Source: Vineibacter terrae
GTDB lineage: Bacteria > Pseudomonadota > Alphaproteobacteria > Reyranellales > Reyranellaceae
Assembly (NCBI RefSeq): GCF_008039615.1
Contig: NZ_VDUZ01000011.1
Span: forward strand, 124,001-188,000
DNA: 64,000 bases
Direction: 5' to 3'
The position numbers were made by a program, and so were the translations under genes. Below are positions 46,727 through 64,000 of the stretch, in pieces (position 1 is the first letter of the stretch; each line of letters starts with the position of its first letter). The notes under the pieces were generated by a model. The model ran no database searches. It saw only the letters and a program-made list of their open reading frames with translations, and was not told the origin of the DNA.

Positions 46727-47266
46727 ATGCGCGTGCGCCCGGCCCGCCCCGACGACGCCGCGATCCTGGCACGCATCTACGTCGCCGCCTGGCGCGATGC
46801 CTATGCCGGCATCCTGCCCGACGCGCTGCTGGTGGGCATGTCCGACGTGCGCCACGCAGCGGCCTGGCAGCACGAGCTGGCGGCGCGCGACCACCAGAGC
46901 GAAACGCTGGTGGCCGAGGACGAGGACGGCGTGCTGGGCCTGGTCACGATCGGGCCGGCGCGGCGCGTCTCGCGCGCCCAGCTCGAGGGCGGCGAGATCT
47001 ACCGCCTCTATGTCGCGCCCGAGCGCCAGGGCGAGGGCGCCGGCAAGATGCTGCTGATGGCCAGCTTCGACTGGCTGATCAACCGCGAGGTTGATGCCGT
47101 GATCGTCTGGGTGCTGGCCGAGAACCCGTCGCGCTTCTTCTACGAGGCGATGGGCGGCACCCGCCTGGGCGAGAAGAGCGACCATGTCGGTGGCGCCAAG
47201 GTGCGCGAGATCGCCTACGGCTGGACCGATCTCGTGGCCGCCCTCGACAAGCTGGCGGCGCGATGA
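46727..47266 (+). CDS. GNAT family N-acetyltransferase
   Basis: A 179-residue acetyltransferase starting [32 protein letters not shown]. The acetyl-CoA loop is in [27 protein letters not shown] (about residues 88-114), matching the Q/RxxGxG/A motif, and [20 protein letters not shown] closes the fold. It starts 2 bases after the rsmB-like stop. The acceptor amine is unknown; the position before guaA is not informative. Confidence 0.9.
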
Positions 47267-47281
47267 TGACGACGTCATTTC

Positions 47282-47407
47282 CCTCCCCAGCTTTGCTGGG
47301 GAGGTGCCCCGAAGGGGCGGAGGGGAGCCGACGTGGTCTCAGCTTCATAGACCACGAAGGCTCCCCATCCGGCCTTCGGCCACCTTCCCCACGCAAGCGT
47401 GGGGAAG
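47282..47407. repeat. Triple-hairpin dispersed repeat between GNAT gene and guaA
   Basis: Three stem-loops follow each other: CCTCCCCAGC-TTT-GCTGGGGAGG (47282-47304), GTGGTCT...AGACCAC (47333-47355), and CTTCCCCACGC...GTGGGGAAG (47384-47407), with a small GCCCCGAAGGGGC in between. The unit is of a type widely scattered in alphaproteobacterial genomes. It precedes guaA closely and would be in its leader if transcription comes from upstream. Confidence 0.75.
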
Positions 47408-47432
47408 GAAAAGGAACAAGGAGCCCCTCCGC

Positions 47433-48983
47433 ATGACCGACCGCATCCTGATCGTCGACTTCGGCTCGCAGGTGACGCAGCTCATCGCGCGGCGCGTGCG
47501 CGAGGCGGGCGTCTATTGCGAGATCCATCCCTTCAACGCGCTCGACGACGCCAGGCTCAAGGCCTTCGACGCCAAGGGCATCATCCTGTCGGGCGGACCG
47601 GCGTCGGTCACCGAAACGGGCACGCCGCGGGTGCCGCAGGCGGCCTTCACCCAGGGCGTGCCGGTGCTGGGCATCTGCTACGGCGAGCAGGCGATGGCGG
47701 CGCAGCTGGGCGGCGCCGTCGAGGGCGGCCATCACCGCGAGTTCGGCCGCGCCGAGGTCGAGGTCAAGGAGCCCAGCGCCCTGTTCGACGGCGTCTGGAA
47801 GCCGGGCGACCGCAAGCCGGTATGGATGAGCCACGGCGATCGCGTCACGCGTCTGCCGCCGGGCTTCCGGGTCGTGGCCACCAGCCAGAACGCGCCCTTC
47901 GCCGCCGTGGCCGACGAGGCGCGCCGGTTCTACGGCGTGCAGTTCCACCCCGAGGTCATGCACACGCCTGACGGCGCCAAGCTGCTGCGCAACTTCGCGC
48001 TCAACATCGCCGGCTGCGCCGGCGACTGGACCATGGGCGCCTTCAGGCAGCGCGCCATCGCCGCGATCCGCGAGCAGGTCGGCAAGGCGCGGGTGATCTG
48101 CGGCCTGTCGGGCGGTGTCGACTCCTCGGTGGTGGCGGTGCTGCTGCACGAGGCGATCGGCGAGCAGCTGCAATGCGTGTTCGTCGACCACGGGCTCTTG
48201 CGGCTGGGCGAAGCCGAGCAGGTGGTGCGGATGTTCCGCGACCACTACAACATCCCGCTGATCCATCGCGATGCCTCGGACCTGTTCCTCAAGGAGCTGG
48301 CCGGCGTCACCGACCCCGAGCAGAAGCGCAAGACCATCGGCCGCCTGTTCATCGATGTCTTCGAGGCGGAGGCCAAGAAGGTCGGCGACGCCCAGTTCCT
48401 GGCCCAGGGCACGCTCTACCCCGACGTGATCGAGTCGGTGTCGTTCACCGGCGGACCGTCGGTGACGATCAAGAGCCATCACAATGTCGGCGGCCTGCCC
48501 GAGCGCATGCATCTGAAGCTGGTCGAGCCGCTGCGCGAGCTGTTCAAGGACGAGGTGCGCGCGCTGGGCCGCGAGCTGGGCATGCCGGCCGACATGGTGA
48601 ACCGCCACCCGTTCCCCGGGCCCGGCCTGGCGATCCGCATCCCCGGCGACATCACCCGGGAGAAGCTCGACCTGCTGCGCCAGGTCGATGCCGTCTACCT
48701 CGACGAGATCCGCAAATCAGCGCTGTACGACGATATCTGGCAGGCCTTCGCGGTGCTGCTGCCGGTGCGGACCGTGGGCGTGATGGGCGACGGCCGCACC
48801 TACGACCAGGCCTGCGCGCTGCGCGCCGTGACCTCGACCGACGGCATGACGGCCGACTACTACCCGTTCCCGCACGAGTTCCTGGGCCGAGTGGCGACGC
48901 GCATCATAAACGAGGTGCGCGGGATCAACCGGGTGACGTACGACATCACGAGCAAGCCGCCGGGGACGATCGAGTGGGAATGA
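47433..48983 (+). CDS. guaA: GMP synthase (glutamine-hydrolysing)
   Basis: A 516-residue GMP synthetase. The class I amidotransferase domain has catalytic C82 in [15 protein letters not shown] and His-Glu in FHPEVMHT. The ATP-pyrophosphatase domain has the PP-loop [15 protein letters not shown], and the C-terminal dimerisation domain ends [18 protein letters not shown], the conserved family end. It aminates XMP to GMP. Its 3' end is where the integrase-bearing island begins; the full-length C-terminus is kept, as expected when an island restores the gene on integration. Confidence 0.97.
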
Positions 48984-49097
48984 TTTTTGCCCATCCGGGC
49001 GTATCCAAAAATACGCCACGATGCGCATAAGTGACTGAAATATATAAATAAGTATCTCAAAATCTTTCAGCGTCTATCGCTGGGCTAGCCTCCGGAA

Positions 49098-49374
49098 TGA
49101 CGGTATGGCTGACGGTATGGCGCATCTTGTCTCAGCCGAAAATCGCATATACCGTCAGGGCCAAGAGAGATGCTGACGGTATATTTTTTGGCATAATGCT
49201 CTGTAAAAACAGGGAAAATACCAAATCAGAAGGGCCATTTTTGGCCTGACGGTATAATTGGGCGCTCTCCGGTATATTTTGTCCAGTCTGGAGGGTGTGG
49301 ATGTTGACAGACGCCGCCATTAAGGCCCTGAAACCGAAAGAAAAATTATACAAGATCGTGGACCGTGACGGTAT
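49098..49374. repeat. Repeated TGACGGTAT sites around the integrase start
   Basis: TGACGGTAT occurs at 49098, 49110, 49174, 49247 and 49366 in direct orientation and once inverted (ATACCGTCA, 49149-49157); a partial CGGTATATTTT lies at 49270. Spacing is irregular. Such short repeats next to an integrase fit arm-type binding sites or operators for the integrase or AlpA protein. Apart from these, the 317-base gap after guaA has a GGCGTAT...ATACGCC hairpin (48998-49017) without a T-run and no gene. Confidence 0.7.
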
Positions 49375-50557
49375 GTATGTCGTGGTCCAGCCATCGGGCG
49401 CGATCGTCTTCCGCCTGGACTACCGACTGAACGGCCGCCGGGAGACGTTGACGCTGGGGCGCTACGGTCCCGCTGGGCTCTCCCTGGCTCGGGCGCGTGA
49501 GAAATTGGTCGATGCTCGGCGCGCCATTTCGGAGGGCCGCTCGCCGGCGCAGGAGAAGCAGCGCGAGAAGCGTCGCCTCCAGGAGGCAAAGAGCTTCGGC
49601 CAGTTCGGTGAGCGCTGGCTTCAGGAAGCACGAATGGCGGACAGCACGCGCGCCATGCGTCGATCAATCTTCGAGCGTGACATTCTTCCGGCGTTTCGCA
49701 ACCGGCTACTGCCGGAGATCCTGCCGGAGGATCTGCGCGGGCTGTGCGCGAAGGTGAAGGAGCGTGGAGCTCCGGCAACGGCGGTCCACGTCAGGGACAT
49801 CGTGAAGCTGGTCTTCGCCTTCGCCATCCTGCATGGCGAGAAGGTCGCCAACCCGGCCGACGAAGTTGGCCCGGCGTCGATCGCGACCTTCGTGCCGAAG
49901 GACCGATCCCTGTCTCCGGCGGAGATCCGCATCATGCTCGGCCAGATCGAGCATGTGGCGACGCTCCCGACGATCCGGCTCGGGATAAAGCTGATCCTGC
50001 TGTCGATGGTGCGAAAGAGCGAATTGCAGGACGCGGTTTGGGATGAGGTCGATTTCGAGAACGCCGTCTGGTCGATCCCCAAGGAGCGGATGAAGCGATC
50101 GAAAGCGCACAATGTCTATCTGTCTCAGCAGATGCTCGACATCTTCATCGCTCTCAAGACCTGCGCCGGCAATTCTAAGTACGTCCTGCCGTCGCGCTAC
50201 GACGCTGACGCCCCGATGTCACGCGCGACCTTCAACCGGATCACGACGGCGGTGGTGGAGCGTGCCAAGAAGGAGGGGCTGCCGCTGGAGTCCTTTACGG
50301 TCCATGATCTCCGGCGAACCGGCTCAACCCTGCTGAACGAGCTGGGCTTCAACAGCGACTGGATCGAGAAGTGTTTGGCGCACGAAGACGGGCGATCGTC
50401 GCGGGGCATCTACAACAAGGCTGAGTATGAGCATCAGCGCCGGCACATGATGCAGGAATGGTCCAACCTGGTGGATGCCTGGGTCGCTGGCCAGAAATAC
50501 ACGCCGACCCTTTATCCTCCGACGATGGATCTACTCACGCCTGAGCCCGATGTTTGA
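49301..50557 (+). CDS. Tyrosine-type site-specific integrase (P4 family)
   Basis: A 418-residue phage-type integrase. The N-terminal arm-binding domain (LTDAAIKALKPKEKLYKIVDRDGMYVVV...RLNGRRETLTLGRYG) is the DUF4102 type seen in P4-like islands, followed by a core-binding domain. Catalytic residues are R238 (MVRKSEL), H335 and R338 (VHDLRRTGS) and Y371 (GIYNKAEY), so it looks functional. The ATG at 49301 has GGAGG at a 6-base spacing; the GTG at 49295 is too close to it. Its last 23 bases overlap the convergent alpA-like gene. Confidence 0.92.
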   Translation: MLTDAAIKALKPKEKLYKIVDRDGMYVVVQPSGAIVFRLDYRLNGRRETLTLGRYGPAGLSLARAREKLVDARRAISEGRSPAQEKQREKRRLQEAKSFGQFGERWLQEARMADSTRAMRRSIFERDILPAFRNRLLPEILPEDLRGLCAKVKERGAPATAVHVRDIVKLVFAFAILHGEKVANPADEVGPASIATFVPKDRSLSPAEIRIMLGQIEHVATLPTIRLGIKLILLSMVRKSELQDAVWDEVDFENAVWSIPKERMKRSKAHNVYLSQQMLDIFIALKTCAGNSKYVLPSRYDADAPMSRATFNRITTAVVERAKKEGLPLESFTVHDLRRTGSTLLNELGFNSDWIEKCLAHEDGRSSRGIYNKAEYEHQRRHMMQEWSNLVDAWVAGQKYTPTLYPPTMDLLTPEPDV

Positions 50558-51004: not shown

Positions 51005-51760
51005 TTAAGCGGTGCTCAACAGCACGGGGCGAGCAATCTTCGGCCTGCGTTGGCCTGCTGCCATAGATAAATTCTGGTCCTTGGCAATCACGCGCAGACT
51101 CGCCGCTGCGTGATGGAACACCCGAAAAGCGTCGGCCACGGCGGGGTCAACGAATGTAGTGGTTGTCTGATTATCTTGCGGGCGCGTTAGGACGCCAGAT
51201 GGAATGGCTTGGTGCCATTGGCGAGCGGCTTTGAATGATTGCACCAATGCGCCGAAGGTGGGGTATGCATGGTCGACGTGGGCGTCGTCGACTGAAACCA
51301 GCTTTCCCGAAATTTCGCAGGGCACACAGCCGTCGGCGTCACCATGCTTTGCAAAGAATTCGCGTTTTGCGGCATGGAGATCGGCCATGACAGCAGCTCT
51401 GCAGGCGTCAGAGAACTCTTGCGCCTCTGGCTTCGGCGTACCCTTGACCGCCCAAATGAAGCTGAAGTCGGTTTCAGTGCCGTCGACACGAATCACCCAA
51501 AACCCCTTCGTCGCACCGCCTGAACTGAAGTTCATGCGGACGTCGAAATAATCGACGCCGCAGCCGATTTTGGAATCTTCCTCAGCGTGTGCGGCATCGA
51601 AGCGCTCAAGGAGCGCCATGAGGTCGGCGTGATCCTGTGCGTCATCAATAGGTGTGCGAAGCGGATGGCGGTCGCGAATCTCTCTGAAATGCTGCTCCGC
51701 CGCTTTCTGCGTTTTCCATTCTCTTCCGTTGGAAAGTGTGATCGTCTTCGCCATTGCCAC
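51005..51760 (-). CDS. DUF3223 (DCL family) protein with HNH-like motif
   Basis: About 251 residues. The N-terminal half is a DUF3223-type domain: QKAAEQHFREIRDRHPLRTPIDDAQDHADLMALLERF, then KIGCGVDYFDVRMN and KGFWVIRVDGTETDFSF. The C-terminal part has CVPCEISGKLVSVDDAHVDHAYPTFGALV, in which Cys-x2-Cys, and Asp-His after a gap, resemble an HNH nuclease core. The GTG at 51760 follows the ATPase stop immediately; an ATG lies at 51754. It is the last gene of a three-gene operon and a plausible nuclease effector for the ATPase. Confidence 0.75.
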   Translation of the reverse strand: MAMAKTITLSNGREWKTQKAAEQHFREIRDRHPLRTPIDDAQDHADLMALLERFDAAHAEEDSKIGCGVDYFDVRMNFSSGGATKGFWVIRVDGTETDFSFIWAVKGTPKPEAQEFSDACRAAVMADLHAAKREFFAKHGDADGCVPCEISGKLVSVDDAHVDHAYPTFGALVQSFKAARQWHQAIPSGVLTRPQDNQTTTTFVDPAVADAFRVFHHAAASLRVIAKDQNLSMAAGQRRPKIARPVLLSTA

Positions 51761-54262
51761 TCATCTCTGCCCGAGGTTCCGGTACCACTTCCGTTCGGGA
51801 GGGGTCTTCGACGTGTCATCGTAGCGGAAGCATTCAGCAAGATCGTCCACGGATTGCAGCACGCCGAGCAGCACATGGGCGTTGATCGGCGTGCCACCGC
51901 CGGTCTCATAGTGACTGACGTAGTTGGCGATGATCGCCGGCACATGCTGGTTGCGGAAATCCGACTTCTGCTGCGCGGACAGCACGAGCTTCCCGCAGCC
52001 GTCATAGAGGTCAATGGCTGCCGAGATGGCGTCGATGGCATTGCCGACCGTCTTATTGTCGCTTCGTATAGCGTAGTCTGGCGGCACCGGAATTTTCAGC
52101 TTGGAGATGATCTGCGACAACTTGAACTCTAGGTACTGCCGCACGAACGGCTGTCCGATATCCACTTGCCCGGCCAGAAGATGCGTTGTCGCAAGGGTTT
52201 TGAGTCGGTTCGCGTCGAGTTGGCTTGCGTACACGTTCCCCGTGGGGGCTGCACCTTGCAGGCGCTGGTGGTGCCAGCCCACCTGTTCGCTTGCCGTCTT
52301 GTCAAAATATTTCTCCAGCAGCGTGTCGTGGCTGAGCACGATGAATTGCAGGCCGTCGGCCGCCGCTGAAGCCTGCAACTTGGTGCGCAAGGCCTCCATC
52401 AAAGCAAACTGGTGGCCGCCGTCGAAGCTGGAGGTGATGTCGTCGAGCACCATGAAGCGTGCGGGACCGCTCTGCTTAACCGCCGCAGCAAAAAAGATCG
52501 CCCCGGCAATGGCGTTCCGATAGCTCTCCGACAGGACGGCGCGCGCTGAGATGCCAGCCTCGCCGTAAAAGTTCTCCAGCTTCAGATCCACGTCCTGGCT
52601 GTCCGACGACCGCTCCAGCTTGGGCCGCATGTCTACACCACCTCGCACCAGGCCCCGGAACAGCTCCTGATAGCTTGCCTCGATCGCGTTGATGCGCTGG
52701 GTCGCCAGCCGGCTCTCCGCCTCGCCCACGGCCTTGGCTGCGGTACTGATGAAGGTCTGCCACCGCTCCCGCCACTTCTTGTGCGTCCGCCAGATGCCCG
52801 CGTCCTTCGCCGCTGTCCGGTGTCCAAGGATGGCTTCGCGAAAGCGGCTTCCGGCTTCAAGCTGCTGGGTCAGCGCGACGAGGGATGGGGAAAGTTCCGC
52901 TTGAAGCTCCTGTTCCCGCTTCTGCGCGGTCTCAAGGGTGGTCTTTCGCTCCTCTTCGAGCTGCTGCGCGCTATCGACCGCTTCACGCAAACGACCTTCG
53001 GTCAGGCGGCCTTCGCTCGCCAACTGCCGGATGTTCGCCCGGTGCTTCTTGTCGTCCGCGATGGTCAGGGCGGCGCAGCCTTCCAGCTTGTTGAGCCAAT
53101 CTAGCCAGACGCTGGCGGTCACGACTTGCTTGAGGTCTTCACCCAGTTGGTCCGCTTCCCGGTAACGCTCAAGCAATCGCTCCATCCGCGCGGCGATGGG
53201 CTCTTCAATCCGCGTGTCACACACGGGGCATTGGTGGGGATCGCTCCAGTCCGCCTCTGCCACCGCGCCCTTGGCTGCCTCGAAAAGGTCCTGTCGGCTT
53301 TTGCTACCAGCAAGCGCGACCGCCGCGTCATGGCGGCGTGCCAGGTCGAGTAGCATCGCGATGTCGGCCGCCACCTCAGAAGCGGGTGCGCTTTGGGCAA
53401 GGGCTTCGATATTCCGCAGCACCTTTTGATATTCGGCTTTGGCCGGGCCGCCTTCCGCCGCGACGATGGCTGCGCGCGCGGCGTCCATATCCACCGTCAG
53501 TATGTTTTTTCCGGCGAAGGCGCGCGCGAGAGTCGGAACGGCCGCCAGTGCGGCCGTCACTTCCGCGATCCGCTGCTCTTCGGCCGAGAGGTCCTGTATA
53601 GCGGTTCCCGTCACGGCCTCAAACGCCGACAACGCCGCGGCCCGACAATCCCGTACGAGCCTTTCGGCAGCATCCAGCTTCGCCTTCAAGGCGGCCATCT
53701 GGAAATCGGTGTTGAAGGCGCGTGTGTTGCTCGCCTGATCGAACCGTTGGTGGAGGTGCGCGAAGCGGGCCAGCCCGATGAGGGAGGAGAAGGTGCGCCC
53801 ACGATCGAGGGGTGTATCGTCGATGAAACGCGCGAACTTGGTGTAGTCTACGACCGTGAAGTCTTCGGCCAAAGAGGCGAGAAACGCTTCGGGATCGGCA
53901 TGTCCTGTCGGGCTCGTCACGGTACGCTGCCCTGCGGCCGTGCGCTGGACAACGATTTCGACCGCCGCCGTGCCGTCGTCCGGTTTAAATTCCAGCGTGA
54001 TAGAGCCGACCCCGCCCGTATGGAAGCGGTTCACGTAGTATGTCTCGGGCCGCTCGCTCCGCTGGAGCCCGTCGAGCTTGGGTAGCTTGCCGAAGATGGC
54101 GTAGCTGATGGCCTCGAAGAGCGAGGTCTTGCCGATGCCGTTCTGGGCATAGATGGAATTGACCGCGTCGGGCTTGAAGCGAAGGGTTAGCGGATCTCCC
54201 TCGTTCTTGATGCCCCGAAACCCTTCGACGCTGAGCTTGGTCAGATAGTAGCGGGGCATCAC
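51761..54262 (-). CDS. Zn-hook RecF/SMC-like AAA ATPase
   Basis: An 833-residue ATPase. The start YYLTKLSVEGFRGI leads to the P-loop AQNGIGKTSLFEA (residues 39-51), whose first Gly is replaced by Ala. Two coiled-coil-like regions flank a hook C345-PV-C348 (CPVCDTRIEEP). The distal half has ISARAVLSESYRNAIAGAIFFAA (signature-like), Walker B FMVLDDITSSFD (about 600) and FIVLSHDTLLEKYF. The start overlaps the small upstream gene by 4 bases. The fold suggests a DNA-sensing or loading ATPase of a defence system, similar in layout to the split ATPase at 5772-8129. Confidence 0.82.
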   Translation of the reverse strand: MMPRYYLTKLSVEGFRGIKNEGDPLTLRFKPDAVNSIYAQNGIGKTSLFEAISYAIFGKLPKLDGLQRSERPETYYVNRFHTGGVGSITLEFKPDDGTAAVEIVVQRTAAGQRTVTSPTGHADPEAFLASLAEDFTVVDYTKFARFIDDTPLDRGRTFSSLIGLARFAHLHQRFDQASNTRAFNTDFQMAALKAKLDAAERLVRDCRAAALSAFEAVTGTAIQDLSAEEQRIAEVTAALAAVPTLARAFAGKNILTVDMDAARAAIVAAEGGPAKAEYQKVLRNIEALAQSAPASEVAADIAMLLDLARRHDAAVALAGSKSRQDLFEAAKGAVAEADWSDPHQCPVCDTRIEEPIAARMERLLERYREADQLGEDLKQVVTASVWLDWLNKLEGCAALTIADDKKHRANIRQLASEGRLTEGRLREAVDSAQQLEEERKTTLETAQKREQELQAELSPSLVALTQQLEAGSRFREAILGHRTAAKDAGIWRTHKKWRERWQTFISTAAKAVGEAESRLATQRINAIEASYQELFRGLVRGGVDMRPKLERSSDSQDVDLKLENFYGEAGISARAVLSESYRNAIAGAIFFAAAVKQSGPARFMVLDDITSSFDGGHQFALMEALRTKLQASAAADGLQFIVLSHDTLLEKYFDKTASEQVGWHHQRLQGAAPTGNVYASQLDANRLKTLATTHLLAGQVDIGQPFVRQYLEFKLSQIISKLKIPVPPDYAIRSDNKTVGNAIDAISAAIDLYDGCGKLVLSAQQKSDFRNQHVPAIIANYVSHYETGGGTPINAHVLLGVLQSVDDLAECFRYDDTSKTPPERKWYRNLGQR

Positions 54263-54486
54263 ACATCCCCCGCAGCGTCTATGTCCGCCTGCGCGGCAAC
54301 CTCCAGCGCCTCTAGGACCTTCTGATTGAAGTCCCGCCGCGCATTGTTGTCGCCGGTCTCCAGGACTGTGAGATTATCGAAGAGGATTTTGGCGCATTCG
54401 GCATCTACCGCCTCCAGGTGCGCTTTCAGCCTTTCGATATTCTTCTGCCAATCCTCGCCGATCGCGAAATCGAAAGAGTTCTGCAT
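54259..54486 (-). CDS. Small acidic protein, first gene of the ATPase operon
   Basis: A 75-residue acidic, helical protein: MQNSFDFAIGEDWQKNIERL, then AECAKILFDNLTVLETGDNNARRDFNQKVLEALEVAAQADIDAAGDV. No family recognised. Its stop overlaps the ATPase ATG by 4 bases (ATGA type), and GGGAGGCGG lies upstream of its start. A small gene in front of an SMC-like ATPase also occurs at 5350-5559. It could be a regulatory subunit or an inhibitor of the ATPase. Confidence 0.7.
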   Translation of the reverse strand: MQNSFDFAIGEDWQKNIERLKAHLEAVDAECAKILFDNLTVLETGDNNARRDFNQKVLEALEVAAQADIDAAGDV

Positions 54487-54577
54487 GCCGCCTCCCGAGC
54501 TTGGCCTCGCTGTCAGTCGGGATCATCGTCAGCCCCAAGCTGCGCGCTATCTCTCCGATTGACCTAGCCCAAATTCA

Positions 54578-54594
54578 CGTATATAAAATATACG
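54578..54594. promoter_or_regulatory. Palindrome between the two divergent defence operons
   Basis: CGTATAT-AAA-ATATACG is a perfect 7-bp inverted repeat around AAA. It lies 92 bases from the small gene start (leftward) and 53 from the WYL gene start (rightward) in an AT-rich stretch. BrxR/CapW-type WYL regulators bind such palindromes at their own promoters, so this is the likely operator for both operons. Confidence 0.6.
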
Positions 54595-54646
54595 CAAAAG
54601 AGATTCAAGAGAGAATAGTTTCTATGCGTGTCTTGCGGAGAATGCA

Positions 54647-55510
54647 TTGATCTGGGGTGCCGGGCAGAGGCTCGAATTCATTGAGTTCCGCCTGTTTTGG
54701 GAGGGGGCGATCAATCGCGCCGACCTCGTAGAGTTTTTCGGCATATCGATCCCTCAGGCATCGAAGGACCTGGCGCTCTATCAGGAGCGAGCACCAGGGA
54801 ACATGGAGTACGACAAGCGCAGCAAGCGCTATGTCGCCGCCGAGCAATTCGTCCTGCGCTTCCTCGACCCTGACCCCTATGTGTATCTCGCGCAGCTTCG
54901 CGCGGTGACGGAAGGGGCAGTCCCTTCCCATGACTCATGGATCGCCGAGCTTCCGAGGGCTGACGTGGCCCTGACGCCTAAGCGGGACATCGACATTGGC
55001 GTCCTGCGCAAGGTTCTCGACGCGGTGCGCGAAGGCGCTTCGGTCGAGGTCTTCTACCAGTCGATGAACAAGGTGCGCCCGGATCCTATCTGGCGTCGGA
55101 TCACGCCCCACGCTTTTGGCTATGACGGTTTCCGCTGGCACGTCCGGGCCTATTGCCACCTTGAGCACAGGTTCAAAGATTTCCTGCTGCCGCGGATTCT
55201 GGAGGTTGGCGCGAAGGGAGAGCCGGGAGAGACCGGCGAACAGGATTGGCTCTGGAACAATTATTTCGACGTCGTCATCGGGCCGCATCCCGCGCTAACC
55301 GAGAGTCAGAAAAAGGTCGTCGCCAAGGATTATGGGCTGGATCACGGCAACGGCGTACTCTCAGTTCGCTATGCGATGCTCTTCTACGTTTTGAAGCGTC
55401 TTGGTTTGCTTGGTGATGCCGCAAAGCAGAGCGCCCATACGCAGCATATCGTTACAATAAACCGCAAGGAAACTGAGGCCGCGCTTGAGAAGGCGGAGCT
55501 TCGGCTATGA
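54647..55510 (+). CDS. WYL-domain transcriptional regulator (BrxR/CapW-like)
   Basis: A 287-residue regulator from a TTG at 54647. The N-terminal winged HTH is RLEFIEFRLFWEGAINRADLVEFFGISIPQASKDLALYQE (residues 8-47). The WYL domain spans about 125-205 with VEVFYQSMNKVRPDPIWRRITPHAFGYDGFRWHVRAYCHLEHRFKDFLLPRIL, including the conserved aromatic and Arg positions, and a C-terminal extension follows. BrxR/CapW proteins repress defence operons until infection. It heads the helicase operon and is divergent from the ATPase operon. Confidence 0.88.
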   Translation: MIWGAGQRLEFIEFRLFWEGAINRADLVEFFGISIPQASKDLALYQERAPGNMEYDKRSKRYVAAEQFVLRFLDPDPYVYLAQLRAVTEGAVPSHDSWIAELPRADVALTPKRDIDIGVLRKVLDAVREGASVEVFYQSMNKVRPDPIWRRITPHAFGYDGFRWHVRAYCHLEHRFKDFLLPRILEVGAKGEPGETGEQDWLWNNYFDVVIGPHPALTESQKKVVAKDYGLDHGNGVLSVRYAMLFYVLKRLGLLGDAAKQSAHTQHIVTINRKETEAALEKAELRL

Positions 55511-55532
55511 ACGAATCGGGGAGCGCCGACTG

Positions 55533-58500
55533 ATGGGGGCGAGGCTTGAGGAGATAAAGAACGGCGCATCGGTGCGGGGCGTCGCCTCGGCGCAGGCCGT
55601 GCATGTCATTTCGGTCGATTGGATTGGCGATCAGGCGGTCAACGTCGTTTACCGCGATCACAACGGCACGGTGGCAGAGGCTGTTCTTTACCGGGACGAC
55701 GAGCATCGTCTTGAAGTCGAGCAGAACGGGCGGCCCTGGTCGTTCGACGCCGATGGCGCGCTGCTGCGTCTGGTGACGGAAGCCAACCGCATCAAGCTGG
55801 CGCACTATTTTGACCCGTATCTGGCGATCCATACGAGTCTGGTCGATCCGCTGCCGCATCAAATCTCAGCGGTCTATGGCGAGATGCTGCCGCGCCAGCC
55901 GCTGCGCTTCCTCCTTGCCGATGATCCCGGCGCCGGCAAAACGATCATGGCCGGGCTATTGATGAAGGAGCTGATCGCCCGCAGCGATCTCGAGCGGTGC
56001 CTCGTCGTCGCTCCGGGCAGCCTGGTCGAGCAGTGGCAGGACGAACTCGGCCAGAAGTTCAATCTCGAATTCGACATCCTTTCCCGCGACATGATTGAGA
56101 ACTCGCGTTCGAGCAATCCGTTCAGCGACCGGGATCGGCTGATCGTCCGTCTCGACGTGCTTGCGCGCAATGAGGAGCTTCAAGAGAAGCTCATGAGCGC
56201 GCGCGAATGGGATCTGATTATCTGCGACGAAGCGCATCGCATGTCGGCCACCTATTTCGGCGGCGAAGTCAAATATACGCGCCGTTATCAGGTCGGTCAG
56301 AAGCTCGGCCAGATCTGCCGGCACCTATTGCTGATGTCGGCGACGCCGCACAACGGCAAGGAAGAGGATTTCCAACTTTTCATGGCGCTGCTCGACGGCG
56401 ATCGGTTCGAGGGCCGGTTTCGCGATGGCGTCCACTATGCCGACACCGAAGACATGATGCGGCGGCTGACCAAGGAGGAACTGCTCAAGTTCGACGGCCG
56501 GCCGCTCTTCCCGGAGCGGCGGGCGCGCACCGTCAAATATCAGCTATCGGCAGGGGAGGCTGCGCTCTACACCGCCGTCACCGAATATGTGCGCACCGAG
56601 ATGAACCGCGTGCAGCGGTTCGCCGAGGGTGACGGGAAGAAGCGCAACAATGTTGGCTTCGCCTTGCAGATTCTACAGCGACGCCTCGCGTCGTCACCGG
56701 CCGCTATCTACCAGTCGCTCAAGCGGCGCCGCGAGCGACTGGAAAATGAGCTGGGCGAGGCGCGCCTTGCCGCCAAGGGTCGCCGGGCCGGCATGGGCGA
56801 ACCGGCGGTCAACGCCGACATGCTGCGCAACATTGAGGAATATGGCCAGGAGGAGATCGACGAGCTTGAGGATCTGATCTCGACGGGAGCGACGACGGCC
56901 GAGACCGTTGAGCAACTCGCCCTGGAAGTCGAGACGCTGAAGGGCCTGGAAACGATGGCGCTCGGCGTGCTGCGCTCCGGCGTGGATACGAAGTGGAGCC
57001 AGCTCAATCGTATACTCGACGACGATCTCATGATCGACGCCGCCGGAAATCGCCGCAAGCTGATCATCTTCACCGAACCCAAGGACACGCTCCACTACCT
57101 GCTCGACAAGGTGCGGGCGCGGCTCGGCAATCCCGAGGCCGTGGAAGTGATCCATGGCGGAGTGTCGCGCGAAGAGCGGCGCAAGGTCGTTGAGCGGTTC
57201 ATGCAGGACAAGGACATGCTGGTCCTCATCGCCAACGATGCGGCCGGCGAAGGCGTGAACCTTCAGCGTGGCCACCTCATGGTCAATTACGACCTGCCGT
57301 GGAACCCGAACAAGATCGAGCAGCGGTTCGGGCGCATCCATCGCATCGGCCAGACCGAGGTCTGCCATCTATGGAACCTCGTCGCGGCCGATACGCGCGA
57401 GGGCGAGGTTTATGCGCGGCTTCTTGAAAAGCTTGAGGCGGCGCGCGAGGCGCTGGGCGGCCGTGTCTATGACGTGCTGGGCGAGTTGTTCGACGGCGTG
57501 GCGCTCAAGGACCTGCTGTTCGAAGCGATCCAGTATGGCGAGAAAGAAGAGGTCAAGGCGCGTCTGTTCCAACAGGTCGATGGCGCCGTCGATCAGGCGA
57601 ACCTGCTCGAACTGCTCCGTCGCCGGGCGCTGACCAACGACACCATGCCGGAGGCCAGGGTCGAGGAGCTGCGGCTGGAAATGGAACGCGCCGAGGCTCT
57701 GCGTCTTCAGCCGCACCACATCCAAAGCTTCTTCGTCGAGGCGTTCCAGCATCTGGGCGGCCGGGTCAAGCGCCGCGAGGAAGGGCGCTGGGAGATCAGC
57801 CATGTGCCGGTGCGCATCCGCGAGCGGGACCGCCAGATCGGGACTGGCGCGCCGATCCAGACGCAATATGAGCGGATCTGCTTCGAGAAGGACAAGATCA
57901 ATCAACAGCCGGTCGCCGCTTTCGTCTGCCCTGGCCATCCGCTGCTCGAAGCTGTGATCAGCCTGATCCGCGAGCAGTATGAGCAGATCATGCGGCAGGG
58001 CGCGATCCTGGTGGACGACACCGATGCTGGCGACGCGCTGTCGGCGATTTTCCTGTTGGAGCACACCGTCCAGGACGGTCGCGTCACCAGCGCCGGCAAG
58101 CCGCATGTGATTTCGCAGCGGCTCCAGTTCGCCGCCATTGATAAGGCCGGGAACGCCGTCAACGCTGGCATCGCACCGCATTTGAATCTGCGGCCCGCCA
58201 AGCCGGAGGAGATCGCCAGCGTGCGCGACCTTCTGGAGGAGAGCTGGCTGACCACTGATCTGGAAAAGACTGCGATCCGGTTTGCTACGGTCGAATTGGC
58301 CCAGGGCCATGTCGCAGAGGTCAAGGCGCGGCGCCTGCCTGAGATCGAAAAGGTCGAGCAGGAAGTTCGTGCGCGGCTCAAGAAGGAGATCAACTACTGG
58401 GACTCGCGCGCCTTCGAGCTGAAGGAAGAGGAGAGGGCCGGCAAGAAGACGCGGGTGAATTGGCAGAACGCCCAGCGCCGGGCCGAAGACCTTGCGGAGC

Positions 58501-59036
58501 GGCAGAAACGCCGCATGGACCAGCTCGAACGGGAACGGTTCATTTCGTCGCAGCCGCCGCGTGTGCGGGGCGGCATGGTCGTCATCCCGCGAGGGCTGCT
58601 GGAAGAGCGTCAGACGCCAAGCGTTCCGAACCGCTTCGCGGAAGATCCCGCCGCACGTCGGCAGATCGAACTTGCGGCGATGGAAGCCGTCATGGCGGCC
58701 GAGCGTGCACTGGGTAACGAGCCGGCCGACGTCTCGGCCCAGAAGATCGGCTACGACATCGCTTCGCATGATCCGAGATCTGGGCATCTGCGCTTCATCG
58801 AGGTCAAGGGTCGCATCGACGGCGCGGACAGCGTGATGATCACGCGGCAGGAGGTCATCACCTCCCTGCACGAGCCGGAGAAATTCATCCTCGCGATCGT
58901 CTCCGTCAACGCCGGTTTCGCCCATGCGCCCCGCTATGTGCGCGGTCCACTCGTCGAGCGTGAGCCGTCCTTTCTGGAAACCGCGATCCAGTTTGACCTT
59001 CGACGCTTGCTGGAACGTGCAGAGGCGCCGTTATGA
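55533..59036 (+). CDS. SNF2-family helicase, DrmD-like
   Basis: A 1167-residue SF2 helicase. Motif I is LADDPGAGKTIMAG, motif II LIICDEAHRMS (DEAH), motif III LLMSATPHNGKEEDF, motif V LIANDAAGEGVNLQ and motif VI IEQRFGRIHRIGQTE. A long middle and C-terminal region with coiled coil (LAERQKRRMDQLERERFI) ends in a DUF3883-like domain (IGYDIASHDPRSGHLRFIEVKGRI), which resembles a nuclease fold. This is the architecture of the DISARM class 1 helicase DrmD and related MTase-linked helicases. The ATG at 55533 is preferred over 55485, which overlaps the WYL gene. Confidence 0.88.
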   Translation: MGARLEEIKNGASVRGVASAQAVHVISVDWIGDQAVNVVYRDHNGTVAEAVLYRDDEHRLEVEQNGRPWSFDADGALLRLVTEANRIKLAHYFDPYLAIHTSLVDPLPHQISAVYGEMLPRQPLRFLLADDPGAGKTIMAGLLMKELIARSDLERCLVVAPGSLVEQWQDELGQKFNLEFDILSRDMIENSRSSNPFSDRDRLIVRLDVLARNEELQEKLMSAREWDLIICDEAHRMSATYFGGEVKYTRRYQVGQKLGQICRHLLLMSATPHNGKEEDFQLFMALLDGDRFEGRFRDGVHYADTEDMMRRLTKEELLKFDGRPLFPERRARTVKYQLSAGEAALYTAVTEYVRTEMNRVQRFAEGDGKKRNNVGFALQILQRRLASSPAAIYQSLKRRRERLENELGEARLAAKGRRAGMGEPAVNADMLRNIEEYGQEEIDELEDLISTGATTAETVEQLALEVETLKGLETMALGVLRSGVDTKWSQLNRILDDDLMIDAAGNRRKLIIFTEPKDTLHYLLDKVRARLGNPEAVEVIHGGVSREERRKVVERFMQDKDMLVLIANDAAGEGVNLQRGHLMVNYDLPWNPNKIEQRFGRIHRIGQTEVCHLWNLVAADTREGEVYARLLEKLEAAREALGGRVYDVLGELFDGVALKDLLFEAIQYGEKEEVKARLFQQVDGAVDQANLLELLRRRALTNDTMPEARVEELRLEMERAEALRLQPHHIQSFFVEAFQHLGGRVKRREEGRWEISHVPVRIRERDRQIGTGAPIQTQYERICFEKDKINQQPVAAFVCPGHPLLEAVISLIREQYEQIMRQGAILVDDTDAGDALSAIFLLEHTVQDGRVTSAGKPHVISQRLQFAAIDKAGNAVNAGIAPHLNLRPAKPEEIASVRDLLEESWLTTDLEKTAIRFATVELAQGHVAEVKARRLPEIEKVEQEVRARLKKEINYWDSRAFELKEEERAGKKTRVNWQNAQRRAEDLAERQKRRMDQLERERFISSQPPRVRGGMVVIPRGLLEERQTPSVPNRFAEDPAARRQIELAAMEAVMAAERALGNEPADVSAQKIGYDIASHDPRSGHLRFIEVKGRIDGADSVMITRQEVITSLHEPEKFILAIVSVNAGFAHAPRYVRGPLVEREPSFLETAIQFDLRRLLERAEAPL

Positions 59037-62000
59037 CCGTGAACCGCCAGGTGGCGGCGCCCCCGGTCGCGTGGCCCGATTATTTCCAGCCGATCCAGGA
59101 ACGCGCCACCAAACGATGGGATCAGCTTGAGGCGGACCCGGAACTTGCCGGGCCATGGCACCAGCTCTTCAAGCAGGTGCAGAGCCCTCGCCATATCCTC
59201 TCCGAGTTGCTTCAGAATGCTGATGATGCCGGCGCCAGCGAAGCGCGTGTCTCGATTGAGAATGATCGCTTCGTGTTCGAGCACAACGGCGAAGACTTCA
59301 TCGAGGCTCACTTCGCGTCAATCTGCCGCTTCGGCTATTCCAATAAACGCGCGCTTCACACAATCGGGTTTCGAGGAATCGGGTTCAAGAGCACGTTCAG
59401 CCTGGGTGATCGCGTCGAGCTTTTCACGCCGACCCTGGCAGTCGCCTTCGAGCGCACGCGGTTCACCCAGCCGCATTGGATCGACAGCCGCAATCTGACG
59501 TCGGGGACCACGCGCGTCGAAGTAGCGATCGCCGACGCGCTGCTACGTCGTGAAGTCGAAAGGAACCTCGACGAATGGCTGAAGAGCCCGGTTTCACTGC
59601 TCTTTTTCAAAAAAATCCGCCGCCTGCGGATCGGCGACAGCGAGGTGCATTGGCAGAGCCTCGGACCCGGCCCCATCGCCGAGAGCGAATGGATGGCCTT
59701 GGATGAGAAGGCGGACAATCCCTTCTTGTTGGTGCGATCGGGCGAGGAAGCCTTTCCGGCTGAGGCGCTCGACGAGATCCGCAAGGAGCGGATGCTGGGG
59801 GCTGAGGACAGTGGTGATTTCCCGCCCTGCCGTATCGAGATCGTGCTGGGCGCGAAAGGCAGGCTCTATGTCGTGCTGCCGACCGGGGTCGAAACGACGC
59901 TTCCCTTCGCCTGCAACGCGCCCTTCATCCAGGATCCGGCGCGTCTCAAGATCAAGGACCCGGAGACCTCGCCGACCAATCGCTGGCTTCTGAATCGGGC
60001 CGGCGAACTCGCCGCGAGCGCGATGATGGAGTGGCTGGAGCGGACCAGGACCGGCGCGCAGGATCGGGCGGACGCCTATGGCCTGCTGCCCGACGTTGAC
60101 CGAGAGGCGACGACGCTCGAAGGGGCATGTGGTGCGATCGTCGAGCTGGCGTTTGATGCTGCTATCGATGGCCGACCGATGCTGTTGACCGAAGAGGGGC
60201 AGCTTGTTGGCGCCAAGAGCGCAATCGCCGTCCCGCGGCCGATATTCGACATCTGGCCGGCGGACCAGGCCATGGCGTTGCTCGACGTCAAGGCCCGCCC
60301 GGCGTTGTGCCAGTATGTATCGTCCAAGGATCGGACCAAGCTCGTCCATTGGGGGCTGGTCGAGGAGTTCTCGAAGGCCGACCTGCTGGAGCGCCTGCGC
60401 AGCAATCATCTCCCTCGGCCCTCGACCTGGCGGCATCTGCTGAACCTGTGGTCCTACATCGCTCCCGAGGTCACGGGCTGGCAGTGCCATGATGCCGATA
60501 GCCTGCGGATTGTGCCCGTTCAGGGCAAGGAGGTGCTCTACGCGGCGTCGGAGATCGTTCGGCTTGGCGAGAAGAAGTTGCTCCAGTCGGAGGGAGACTG
60601 GGAGTTCCTCGCCAGCCACCTGATCGTCCTCAATCAGAACTGGACCCGCTTCCTCGCCGAGCAGCGTCGCGACAAGGGAGAGGGGGAGAGCCGCAACGAT
60701 CCGGTCGAGGCGGCATTCGCGGTGCTGGAGGAGATCGGCCTCGACGGGACGAGCGACGTCAACGCAGTGATCGAGCGCGTCGCCGCCGATTATTTCGGCT
60801 CCGGTCAGCCGAAGCTCGCCGAGTGCGTCCAGCTTGCCCAGATCGCCGCCAAGCTGGGCGTCACGATCGGCGACGCCTTCCGATATGCCTGCGCCGATCT
60901 GAAGCTTCGGCCGATCGGCAAGGGGGTGTTGTTCGACGAGAATGGCGCGTTGGAGGAGTTGTTGCCGGAGTCCGTCCGAAAGACGCAGCTCCTGCATGGC
61001 GATTATGTGGCGAGCTTCAAATCCTGCACGCGGGAAGATTGGCAGCGCTGGGTGTCGTCGGGCCGTTCGGGGCTTCAGACGATGGCGCCGCTCGCTCAGA
61101 AGCGGACCAGCATTTACGGACGTCAGCGCGCCGTTGCGGAGGCGCAGGCGCGCGGGCAGCGCCAGCCGCTTTATTATGCCTATGTCACGGATAGCTTCGT
61201 TCTTGATGATTGGGACTTCCCAGCCGACTATTGGCGGCACTGGGAGTCGTTGTCGAAAGCCGATCCCGGTATTTGGGCCAAGGTCGTCGGGAAGGTCCTG
61301 GAGCAGCGCGACGCCTATTGGTCACGGGCTTCGAGCGCTCGCCTGTCGCAGGTGGCGACCACCGGATCGACGCGATCGGTCAGCTCGGAGCCGTTGCTGG
61401 CGGATTGGCTGCTGAAACTGCGGGCCAAGCCCTGCCTTCCTGACACCCGCAACATGATCCAGCTCTCGGCGGAACTGGTGCGCAGGACGCCGGAGACGGA
61501 GGCGCTGATCGACGTTGAGCCCTTCGTGCACGGGCTGCTCGACCGGGAAACGACGCGCCCGCTGCTCGATCTTCTCGGTGTCCGCAGCGCGCCTAGCGGC
61601 CCGGGGCGCCTGCTCGACCGGCTGCGCGCCCTGGCGAAATCCGACCGGGCGCCGGCGCATGAGGTCGAGAAATGGTATCGCCGCCTGGATCAGATGCTCG
61701 ACGGTTGCTCGACCGCTGATGCGCAGAACATCAGGAACGCGTTCAAGGTCGAGAAGCTGATCCTCGCCCAGGACGGGACATGGGCAACGACCGGCGGCAT
61801 CTTCCTGGCCGGGGATGAGGAGGATGTTCCCGGCGCCGCGGTCGTGCGCGCGTCCGTGCTCGACCTCAGCCTCTGGCGTCGTATCGGTGTCGCCGACCGC
61901 CCGTCCGCGGACCTCGCGCTGCAATGGCTCGGAACCCTGGCCTCAGGGAAGGTTCTGTCGGCCGACGACGCCCGGCGGGCTCGCACCTTGCTGGTCCGCT

Positions 62001-63262
62001 ACCCGACTCGGATTTGGGAGGAGTGCGGGCACTGGCTAAACCTCGTGGCCGAATGGGCGCCGGTCGATACGCTCGCCTATGGCCTGAGCATGCAGACCCT
62101 GTTCCGCTGGAGCCATCTGCACGAATGGGTCAAGCGCAAAACCGCCGATTTTCAGCGGCTGTCGGCGGAGACCGTGCAGGCGCCGCCGTTCTCGACGTTG
62201 CCGGCCTTGTCGGACCTCGTCGAGGAACGGTTCAACCAACCGTCGCTGCTGGCCAGCATGGAAGACCGTCGCGCTTGGCTGACAGCGTTCGGAATGCAGC
62301 TCGGGCGCATAGAGCTTGCCGATGCCGCCGAGACCGAGCGCGTGCGGGCGCTGGCGGAAGCGATCGCGGAGACGAGCTGGGTCCAGACCCCCAAGCTGGA
62401 GGTTATTCCCTATCTCGACGGCGTGCCAGCCGGCATGGCCCGGCTCACTGACATTCTGTGGCTCGACCGCAAGCTGTTCGTCAGCCCGTTGTCGAAGGCT
62501 AAGCTCGCCAAGCGGGTACCCGAAGAGATCGGCAGAAGCCTGAGCGCGGATGTTCGCGCGGCGCTGTCCTATGCCTTCGAGCGTTCGCCCGAGGACATCA
62601 AGGAATATCTTGAGGAGAACTTCGCGCTCGGCTCTGAGCAAATCGTCGTCGCGCCGGCCGTCGAGGCCCAGCCCACAGCCGCTCGTAGCGATGATGATGC
62701 AGCCGACGACTCTGTCGAAGACATGCGCGACGATGGCGCGCCGGCCGAGGCGAACGATCTCCTCCTATCGGAGGAGGGCGAATCCGCCACGCAACCCAAA
62801 CAGGAGCTGCAGACCGGAGAGCCGGATCGTGAGCTGATCGAAACGGACATTGCGACCAGGCCCCGTGCCGCGCCGAAGCCCGCTCGCCCCAGCGTCATGG
62901 CTCGCTTCGCACTCGGCCAGGGTTACAAGGCGGACGGCGAGGATCGCTTCTTCCATGCGGACGGGGGCTGGATTAGCCGCGCCAACGGCACACGGTTCCC
63001 GTGGGAACGCCGCTCGGCGGGAGGCGAGATCCTGCGCCACTACTATCCCAAGGATCATTGCCTGGAGCACGAACCGCTCCAGCTTGAAGCCGATGTCTGG
63101 GGGCTGCTCGACCAGAAACCGGACCTCTATTCGTTCATTCTCATCAACCCCGAGGGAGATCCCGTTGAAATGACGGGCGTCCGCCTGCGCGCACTGCGCG
63201 ATGGAGGCGAACTGACCATTCACCCCGCAACGTACAGGCTTGTTTATGACCTCGACGACTAA
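59033..63262 (+). CDS. Large sacsin/Hsp90-type (GHKL) ATPase-domain protein
   Basis: A 1409-residue protein. The N-terminal GHKL ATPase of sacsin type is clear: [20 protein letters not shown] (residues 54-73, N box with E58, N62 and D64/D65) and [18 protein letters not shown] (109-126, G box), then [17 protein letters not shown]. The remaining 1200 residues have no recognised enzymatic motif; an acidic linker (about 1225-1270) precedes a C-terminal domain with [20 protein letters not shown]. It overlaps drmD-like and methylase genes. Such proteins occur in defence islands; the mechanism is unknown. Confidence 0.82.
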
Positions 63263-64000
63263 CACCAAGAAGAAATTGATCGAGGTTGCGATCCCGCTCG
63301 AAGCGATCAACGCTGCCTCCGCACGCGAGAAGTCGATCCGGCATGGGCATCCGTCAACGCTGCATCTGTGGTGGGCGCGGCGGCCGCTGGCAGCCTGCCG
63401 CGCCGTGCTGTTCGCCCAGCTTGTCGATGATCCGTCGAGCGACCTCGAAAAATTCCCCACGCATGAAGCACAGGAGGTGGAGCGCAAGCGCCTGTTCGGC
63501 ATCATCGCGGAACTGGTGAAGTGGGAGAACTCGACCAACGAGGAGGTGCTGGAGCGCGCCCGCGCCGAAATCCGCAAGAGTTGCGGCGGAGAGCTGCCGC
63601 CGGTTTATGACCCGTTCTCGGGCGGTGGGTCGATCCCGCTGGAGGCGCAGCGCCTCGGTCTGCCCGCCTATGGCTCGGACCTGAACCCGGTCGCGGTAAT
63701 GATCGGCAAGGCGATGATCGAGATCCCGCCGAAGTTCAAGGACAGGGACCCGATTCATCCCGGCGTGAAGGACCGGCAATTCTACCGCAACGCCGAGGGC
63801 CTAGCCGAGGACGTCAAATACTATGGCGAGTGGATGCGCGAGAAGGCGTGGGAGCGCATCGGGCATCTCTATCCGCAGGCGGACCTGCCCAAGCATTTGG
63901 GCGGCGGCAAAGCGACCGTCGTTGCCTGGATATGGGCGAGGACCGTTCCGAGCCCTGACCCTGCGTTTGCAGGTGTGCCGGTGCCGATTGCATCGAGTTT
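63246..64000 (+). CDS. DUF1156 adenine-specific DNA methyltransferase (partial, cut by window edge)
   Basis: The first 251 codons of a gene that runs off the window. It starts [46 protein letters not shown], the hallmark of DUF1156 proteins. The SAM-binding motif is [19 protein letters not shown] with [14 protein letters not shown] following, and the frame ends in [18 protein letters not shown]. The catalytic (D/N)PPY motif should lie beyond 64000. The ATG at 63246 overlaps the previous gene by 17 bases. It should mark host DNA by adenine methylation in the helicase-linked defence system. Confidence 0.88.

What the first reader, a model, noticed from the sequence alone, without database searches (positions are those of the whole stretch)
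54487..54646. One WYL regulator and one palindrome may control two divergent defence systems
CGTATAT-AAA-ATATACG lies in the 160-base gap between the ATPase operon and the WYL-led helicase operon. BrxR/CapW-type WYL proteins repress at palindromes upstream of their own gene. A single switch derepressing two unrelated systems at once would couple them functionally.
Basis: partly seen in the sequence, partly recalled or inferred. Interest (0 to 1): 0.6.

Follow-up and report, generated by a model that had tools for sequence, protein, structure and literature searches.

The report
Shared switch between two defence operons
The gap holds a conserved pair of binding sites for a CapW/BrxR-type repressor on top of overlapping back-to-back promoters, and in dozens of related bacteria the same switch sits between two anti-phage systems, of which the left one is swapped often and the right one sometimes, so one regulator probably controls two otherwise unrelated defences at once.

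Summary
The palindrome is real (54578-54594), but taken alone it is not beyond chance. It becomes significant by comparison. Box1 covers the -10 of a good rightward promoter and the predicted -10 of a leftward one. A leftward -35 (GTC[AC]A on the + strand) lies between the boxes in 72 of 79 loci (3.4% by chance); in the window it is degenerate (TTGAAT).

The regulator is CapW-like (PDB 7tb6, E=4e-58), followed by hmaA, a sacsin-like gene and hmaB. Among orthologues the right arm is Hma, BREX, type I RM or SbcCD-like; the divergent left arm is PD-(D/E)XK+UvrD, CBASS, Qat, TIR, short pAgo and others, with at least 20 changes on the regulator tree. The window's left arm (small protein, SMC-like ATPase, DUF3223) has a 90%-identical relative without WYL or boxes, so it was probably captured under this promoter.

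Dual control is supported comparatively; binding, repression and the window's leftward promoter remain untested.

The parts
54578..54594 (+). Operator box1, CGTATATAAAATATACG, covering the -10 elements of both predicted promoters
   Evidence: exact position; 23.9 bits, best site in the window with a motif from other genomes; conserved in orthologues
54612..54628 (-).
   Evidence: 17.2 bits, second best in the window; same 34-bp spacing in relatives
54559..54587 (+). Predicted rightward promoter TTGACC (54559-54564)-N17-TATAAA (54582-54587)
   Evidence: Sequence; TTGAC/TTGAT before box1 in 78 of 79 loci. The stricter consensus scan did not list it because position 6 of the -10 is A
54580..54608 (-). 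Predicted leftward promoter TTGAAT (54608-54603)-N17-TATATA (54585-54580); degenerate -35
   Evidence: Sequence; homologous -35 (GTC[AC]A on + strand) present in 72 of 79 loci against 3.4% by chance, not in the window
54647..55510 (+). CapW/BrxR-type regulator (winged HTH, WYL, C-terminal extension), 287 aa, TTG start
   Evidence: Pfam WYL; CapW 7tb6 E=4.4e-58 over residues 3-277, BrxR 7t8k 3e-32
55485..59036 (+). HmaA helicase with NOV_C (likely start ATG 55533)
   Evidence: PADLOC HmaA 1591 bits; Pfam
59033..63262 (+). Sacsin/HSP90-like ATPase (TmtA-like) embedded between hmaA and hmaB
   Evidence: PADLOC TmtA 192 bits; Pfam SACS just under its cut-off
63240..64000 (+). HmaB DNA methylase (DUF1156), runs past the window end
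   Evidence: PADLOC HmaB 350 bits; Pfam DUF1156; contig ends 940 bases after the window
54259..54486 (-). Small first gene of the leftward operon, 75 aa
   Evidence: homologues precede the same ATPase on three plasmids
51761..54262 (-). SMC/RecN-like AAA_23 ATPase, 833 aa
   Evidence: plasmid relatives 34-90% identical
51005..51760 (-). DUF3223 protein (PADLOC HamC2)
   Evidence: PADLOC HamC2 313 bits; Pfam DUF3223

Best explanation
The gap is a conserved bidirectional switch. A CapW-type WYL repressor dimer binds two inverted 17-bp boxes 34 bp apart. Box1 covers the -10 of the rightward promoter (regulator, hmaA, sacsin-like gene, hmaB) and the overlapping -10 of a leftward promoter (small protein, SMC-like ATPase, DUF3223). 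In an unstressed cell bound repressor keeps both operons and its own gene low. A signal of infection or DNA damage sensed by the WYL domain releases it and both operons rise together. In Alphaproteobacteria the switch is a hub: the left arm is exchanged often, the right arm sometimes, by recombination whose junction lies in or just upstream of the 5' end of the regulator gene. Shown here: the boxes, their spacing, the homology of the regulator, the exchange of arms. Inferred: binding, repression, the signal, and transcription of the left arm of this window from this promoter.
For: The two best motif places of 64 kb both lie in the gap, with a motif that excludes the window; background 0 of 2.52 million at 17 bits or more. 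Box spacing 32-34 bp in nearly all orthologues, and 34 bp in seven loci not used to build the motif, down to 45% regulator identity. Rightward -35 in 78/79, leftward -35 in 72/79 against 3.4% by chance. Three loci whose nearest left genes point towards the switch (L015, L050, L079) lack the leftward -35; Fisher p=0.001, not corrected for kinship. Leftward genes with a Shine-Dalgarno start within about 320 bp of box1 in nearly all; a DUF2188 leader is shared by Qat, CBASS, TIR and pAgo arms. Left arm changes at least 20 times and right arm at least 6 on the regulator tree. The window's ATPase unit is 90% identical to one on a Rhizobium plasmid that has no WYL and no boxes; homology stops inside the small ORF at about 54475, so its own upstream was left behind. 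CapW precedent: divergent orientation, palindrome on the -10, bidirectional repression measured (PMC9122588).
Against: The window's leftward promoter is weak by sequence (TTGAAT/TATATA, 8 of 12) and lacks the conserved GTC[AC]A. The 90 bp between box1 and the small ORF could hold an unrecognised promoter, although the consensus scan found none. Defence genes cluster anyway, so adjacency alone is not regulation. The spacer motif could be part of the operator rather than a -35. The loci are the best 80 of 476, related to one another, and almost all Alphaproteobacteria.
Confidence: 0.7

Rival explanations
1. The regulator controls only its own operon (WYL-Hma). The left operon merely landed next to it in a defence island and uses its own promoter within 54487-54577.
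For: The leftward -35 is degenerate in the window. The left operon is absent from all 80 other loci. Defence genes cluster in islands in general.
Against: The leftward -35 is conserved in 72/79 loci whatever the cargo. The ATPase unit came without its own upstream region. No promoter-like site was found in the gap by the strict scan. CapW repression is bidirectional in E. coli (PMC9122588).
Confidence: 0.18
2. The protein is not a plain repressor of both arms but drives them in opposite senses, or activates one, because RNA polymerase cannot use both orientations of an overlapping promoter at once.
For: The -10 elements overlap by 4 bp and predicted starts are about 21 bp apart, like bidirectional promoters where the two directions compete (PMC12825309). 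WYL activators exist (SiwR, PafBC, DriD; abstracts).
Against: The closest characterised relatives, CapW and BrxR, are repressors with sites on or near the promoter. Box2 lies downstream of the predicted rightward start, a repressor position.
Confidence: 0.1
3. The palindrome is a chance AT-rich repeat without regulatory meaning.
For: 7% of shuffled gaps hold an inverted repeat this good.
Against: Motif from other genomes, second box, fixed spacing and held-out loci.
Confidence: 0.02

Closest known systems
CapW of CBASS (PMC9122588; PDB 7tb5, 7tb6, 9c5g)
   Same: Homology over nearly the full length, S-x-x-Q-x-S DNA-contact residues kept, divergent orientation to an operon, palindrome on the -10, bidirectional repression in the precedent; the S. 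maltophilia promoter also has two imperfect palindromes.
   Different: There the regulator guards one CBASS system. Here the regulator's own strand carries a second system (Hma), and the divergent partner is exchanged among many kinds.
BrxR of BREX (PMC9122601, PMC9122589; PDB 7t8k, 7qfz)
   Same: WYL repressor upstream of and codirectional with a defence operon, binds inverted repeats near its own promoter; 29 of 347 homologues have defence systems on both sides.
   Different: Those authors focused on the downstream system; dual divergent control is not described in the passages read. Lower similarity than CapW.
Bidirectional promoters with a shared -10 (PMC12825309)
   Same: Overlapping -10 elements on opposite strands, starts about 20 bp apart.
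   Different: Described for E. coli regulators in the passages read; not for a shared switch of two immune systems.

Membership tests
CapW/BrxR WYL regulators | Winged HTH, WYL and C-terminal extension in one chain of about 290 aa | tested here: met
   Alignment to CapW 7tb6 over residues 3-277, E=4.4e-58; by sequence, no structure predicted
CapW/BrxR WYL regulators | DNA-contact residues Ser-x-x-Gln-x-Ser of CapW | tested here: met
   SIPQAS in the window; PQAS kept in all orthologues listed
CapW/BrxR WYL regulators | Palindromic operator on or near the promoter of its own operon | tested here: met
   Boxes 54578-54594 and 54612-54628
CapW/BrxR WYL regulators | Represses transcription; relieved on infection | not testable with these tools
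   Needs binding and expression experiments
CapW in the narrow sense | Divergent from a CBASS operon | tested here: not met
   The window's divergent operon is small protein-ATPase-DUF3223, not CBASS; some orthologues do face CBASS
Hma system | HmaA helicase, HmaB methylase, HmaC ATPase | tested here: inconclusive
   HmaA and HmaB found; the contig ends 940 bases after the window, so HmaC was not seen
Hachiman type II (HamC2) | HamC2 together with the other Ham genes | tested here: inconclusive
   HamC2/DUF3223 found, but none of the families listed for its SMC-like ATPase neighbour is a Ham model
Bidirectional promoter | Transcription in both directions from a shared -10 | not testable with these tools
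   Sequence layout fits; transcript starts not measured

The most novel reading that the evidence does not exclude
The regulator and its paired boxes form a plug-in control hub of Alphaproteobacteria: one ligand-sensing repressor couples two complete immune systems, and evolution swaps either arm while the switch stays, so that any captured operon (here an ATPase unit that left its own promoter behind) comes under the same infection signal at once.
Probability: 0.55. Interest if true: 0.78.

Novelty: new variant of a known kind. Interest (0 to 1): 0.63.

Why it matters
How bacteria coordinate several defence systems is an open question. A conserved switch that faces two systems, with exchangeable partners, makes co-regulation directly testable: one deletion and two transcript measurements would show whether unrelated defences are induced as a unit. 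It would also offer a way to find new defence systems: read the divergent arm next to this operator.

Tried and rejected
Palindrome alone as evidence: rejected, not beyond chance. The strict promoter scan found nothing, because it demands T at the last -10 position; the promoters were read by eye and by conservation. Loci L004 and L005 seemed to lack boxes, and L005 seemed to have swapped arms: both were artefacts of unreversed minus-strand loci and were withdrawn; L004 has a strong pair, L005 a weaker one. The same artefact means the rows for L004 and L005 should be ignored; they also entered the tree only if an open frame long enough was read, and carry no arm label there. A search for the leftward ATPase in 385 genomes of the class found only the window's own at E<=1e-30; plasmid relatives were found instead. 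Literature searches for the same arrangement, or for DUF2188 with CBASS and Qat, found no description in the held library. The third-best motif place (49336, inside the integrase gene) was judged background: 2 such sites in 2.5 million positions.

Full report
Observation. The palindrome is at 54578-54594 and the gap is 160 bases, 54487-54646. On its own an inverted repeat of this quality is expected in about 7% of shuffled gaps, so the palindrome by itself proves nothing.

What lies on each side. Rightwards: a 287-aa WYL regulator (54647-55510), then HmaA (55485-59036, likely start 55533), a 1409-aa sacsin-like ATPase, and HmaB, which runs off the window; the contig ends 940 bases later, so HmaC was not seen. 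Leftwards: a 75-aa protein, an 833-aa SMC/RecN-like ATPase and a DUF3223 protein, closely packed. The regulator's nearest solved relatives are CapW proteins (7tb6, E=4.4e-58; 7tb5; 9c5g), then BrxR (7t8k, 3e-32), aligned over nearly the full length. The CapW DNA-contact residues Ser-x-x-Gln-x-Ser are present as SIPQAS.

Comparative test. A scan of genome contigs gave 80 orthologues at 63-89% identity. A motif built from 57 non-redundant upstream regions, window excluded, has the consensus AGTATAAAAACTATACG. In the window its two best places are the palindrome (23.9 bits, + strand) and a second box at 54612-54628 (17.2 bits, - strand), both in the gap. Outside the operator regions, 2.52 million scored positions gave 6 sites at 10 bits or more and none at 17. 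When the best + and best - sites are taken independently, they are 32-34 bp apart in nearly all orthologues; the exceptions are L056, L064-L066 and L086. Seven loci from whole-genome searches that were not used for the motif (L098, L003, L099, L004, L101, L100, L108; 85 to 45% identity) have the pair at exactly 34 bp; several others at 41-50% identity have one box or none.

Promoters. Rightwards TTGACC-N17-TATAAA puts the -10 inside box1. TTGAC or TTGAT stands just before box1 in 78 of 79 loci. Between the boxes, 72 of 79 loci have GTCAA or GTCCA, that is TTGAC or TGGAC for leftward transcription, against 3.4% in shuffles. In the window the corresponding sequence is TTGAAT, with TATATA at 17 bases, again inside box1. 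The predicted starts, 54594 and 54573, are about 21 bp apart; published bidirectional promoters prefer 18, with 10 and 23 also common (PMC12825309). That the element is a -35 and not part of the operator is an inference. Three loci whose nearest left genes point towards the switch instead of away (L015 HTH protein, L050 methyltransferase, L079 UmuC-like polymerase) are among the few that lack it; Fisher p=0.001 without correction for kinship.

The arms. Left arms, read divergently, are PD-(D/E)XK plus UvrD (44 loci including L003), CBASS of several kinds (10), MBL-E1-JAB-patatin (7), Qat (5), TIR (3), a DEAD helicase (2), and single cases of short pAgo, SbcCD-like and PDC-M48-like. Right arms are Hma in most, BREX in 7, type I restriction in 1, SbcCD-like in 1. 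An SbcC-like protein is a right arm in L067 and a left arm in L074, 38% identical. On the regulator tree the left arm changes at least 20 times and the right arm at least 6. Pairs such as L041/L044 and L029/L031 are 91-98% identical from about codon 40 of the regulator into hmaA but unalignable upstream; L023/L032 keep the operator and differ further left. So exchange seems to occur by recombination close to the 5' end of the regulator gene or just upstream of it. Small leader genes often come first on the left: DUF2188 before Qat, CBASS, TIR and pAgo arms, and a 47-aa protein before others.

The window's left arm. It is absent from the 80 loci. A 90%-identical ATPase with a homologous small ORF sits on a Rhizobium plasmid without WYL or boxes nearby. 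DNA homology with the window begins at about 54475, inside the small ORF, and nothing upstream of its start is shared. The unit therefore seems to have been placed behind this switch without its own promoter.

Mechanism and prior knowledge. CapW is divergent from CBASS, binds palindromes on the -10 and represses in both directions in a reporter (PMC9122588). BrxR binds inverted repeats upstream of its own operon, and 29 of 347 homologues have defence systems on both sides (PMC9122601). The most likely mechanism is thus joint repression of both arms and joint release. What is new is that both sides carry separate systems and that the partners are exchanged while the switch stays. I found no description of this in the held library, which lacks most subscription papers.

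Limits. No binding or expression data. The leftward promoter of the window is weak. Loci are related and chosen as the best 80 of 476. Arm labels rest on similarity to representatives that were scanned against PADLOC and Pfam, not on a scan of every gene.

Noticed in passing
47184-50557: guaA is followed by a tyrosine integrase (49295-50557) at the edge of the defence region, as in islands inserted at the 3' end of guaA.
   Followed up: no
51761-54486 (-): The 75-aa protein and SMC-like ATPase form a two-gene unit seen on alphaproteobacterial plasmids (Rhizobium, Cereibacter) where no DUF3223 homologue was found nearby; PADLOC gives only weak LmuB and mad3 hits. It may be a separate, undescribed defence unit.
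   Followed up: partly
59033-63262: A sacsin/HSP90-like ATPase (TmtA-like) is embedded between hmaA and hmaB; about half of the Hma relatives lack it, suggesting a third cargo slot.
   Followed up: partly
L018 4561-7947, L065 3079-6474, L077 9096-14945: Arms of the hub that match no complete known system (a DEAD-type helicase, RNase H plus AAA, a 1950-aa protein with no PADLOC hit); candidates for new defence systems.
   Followed up: no
L041, L045, L051, L056, L064, L086 (left of box1): A 78-aa DUF2188 protein is the first divergent gene before unrelated systems; its role is unknown.
   Followed up: partly
49336-49352: Third-best motif place of the window (13.5 bits) inside the integrase gene; probably background.
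   Followed up: partly
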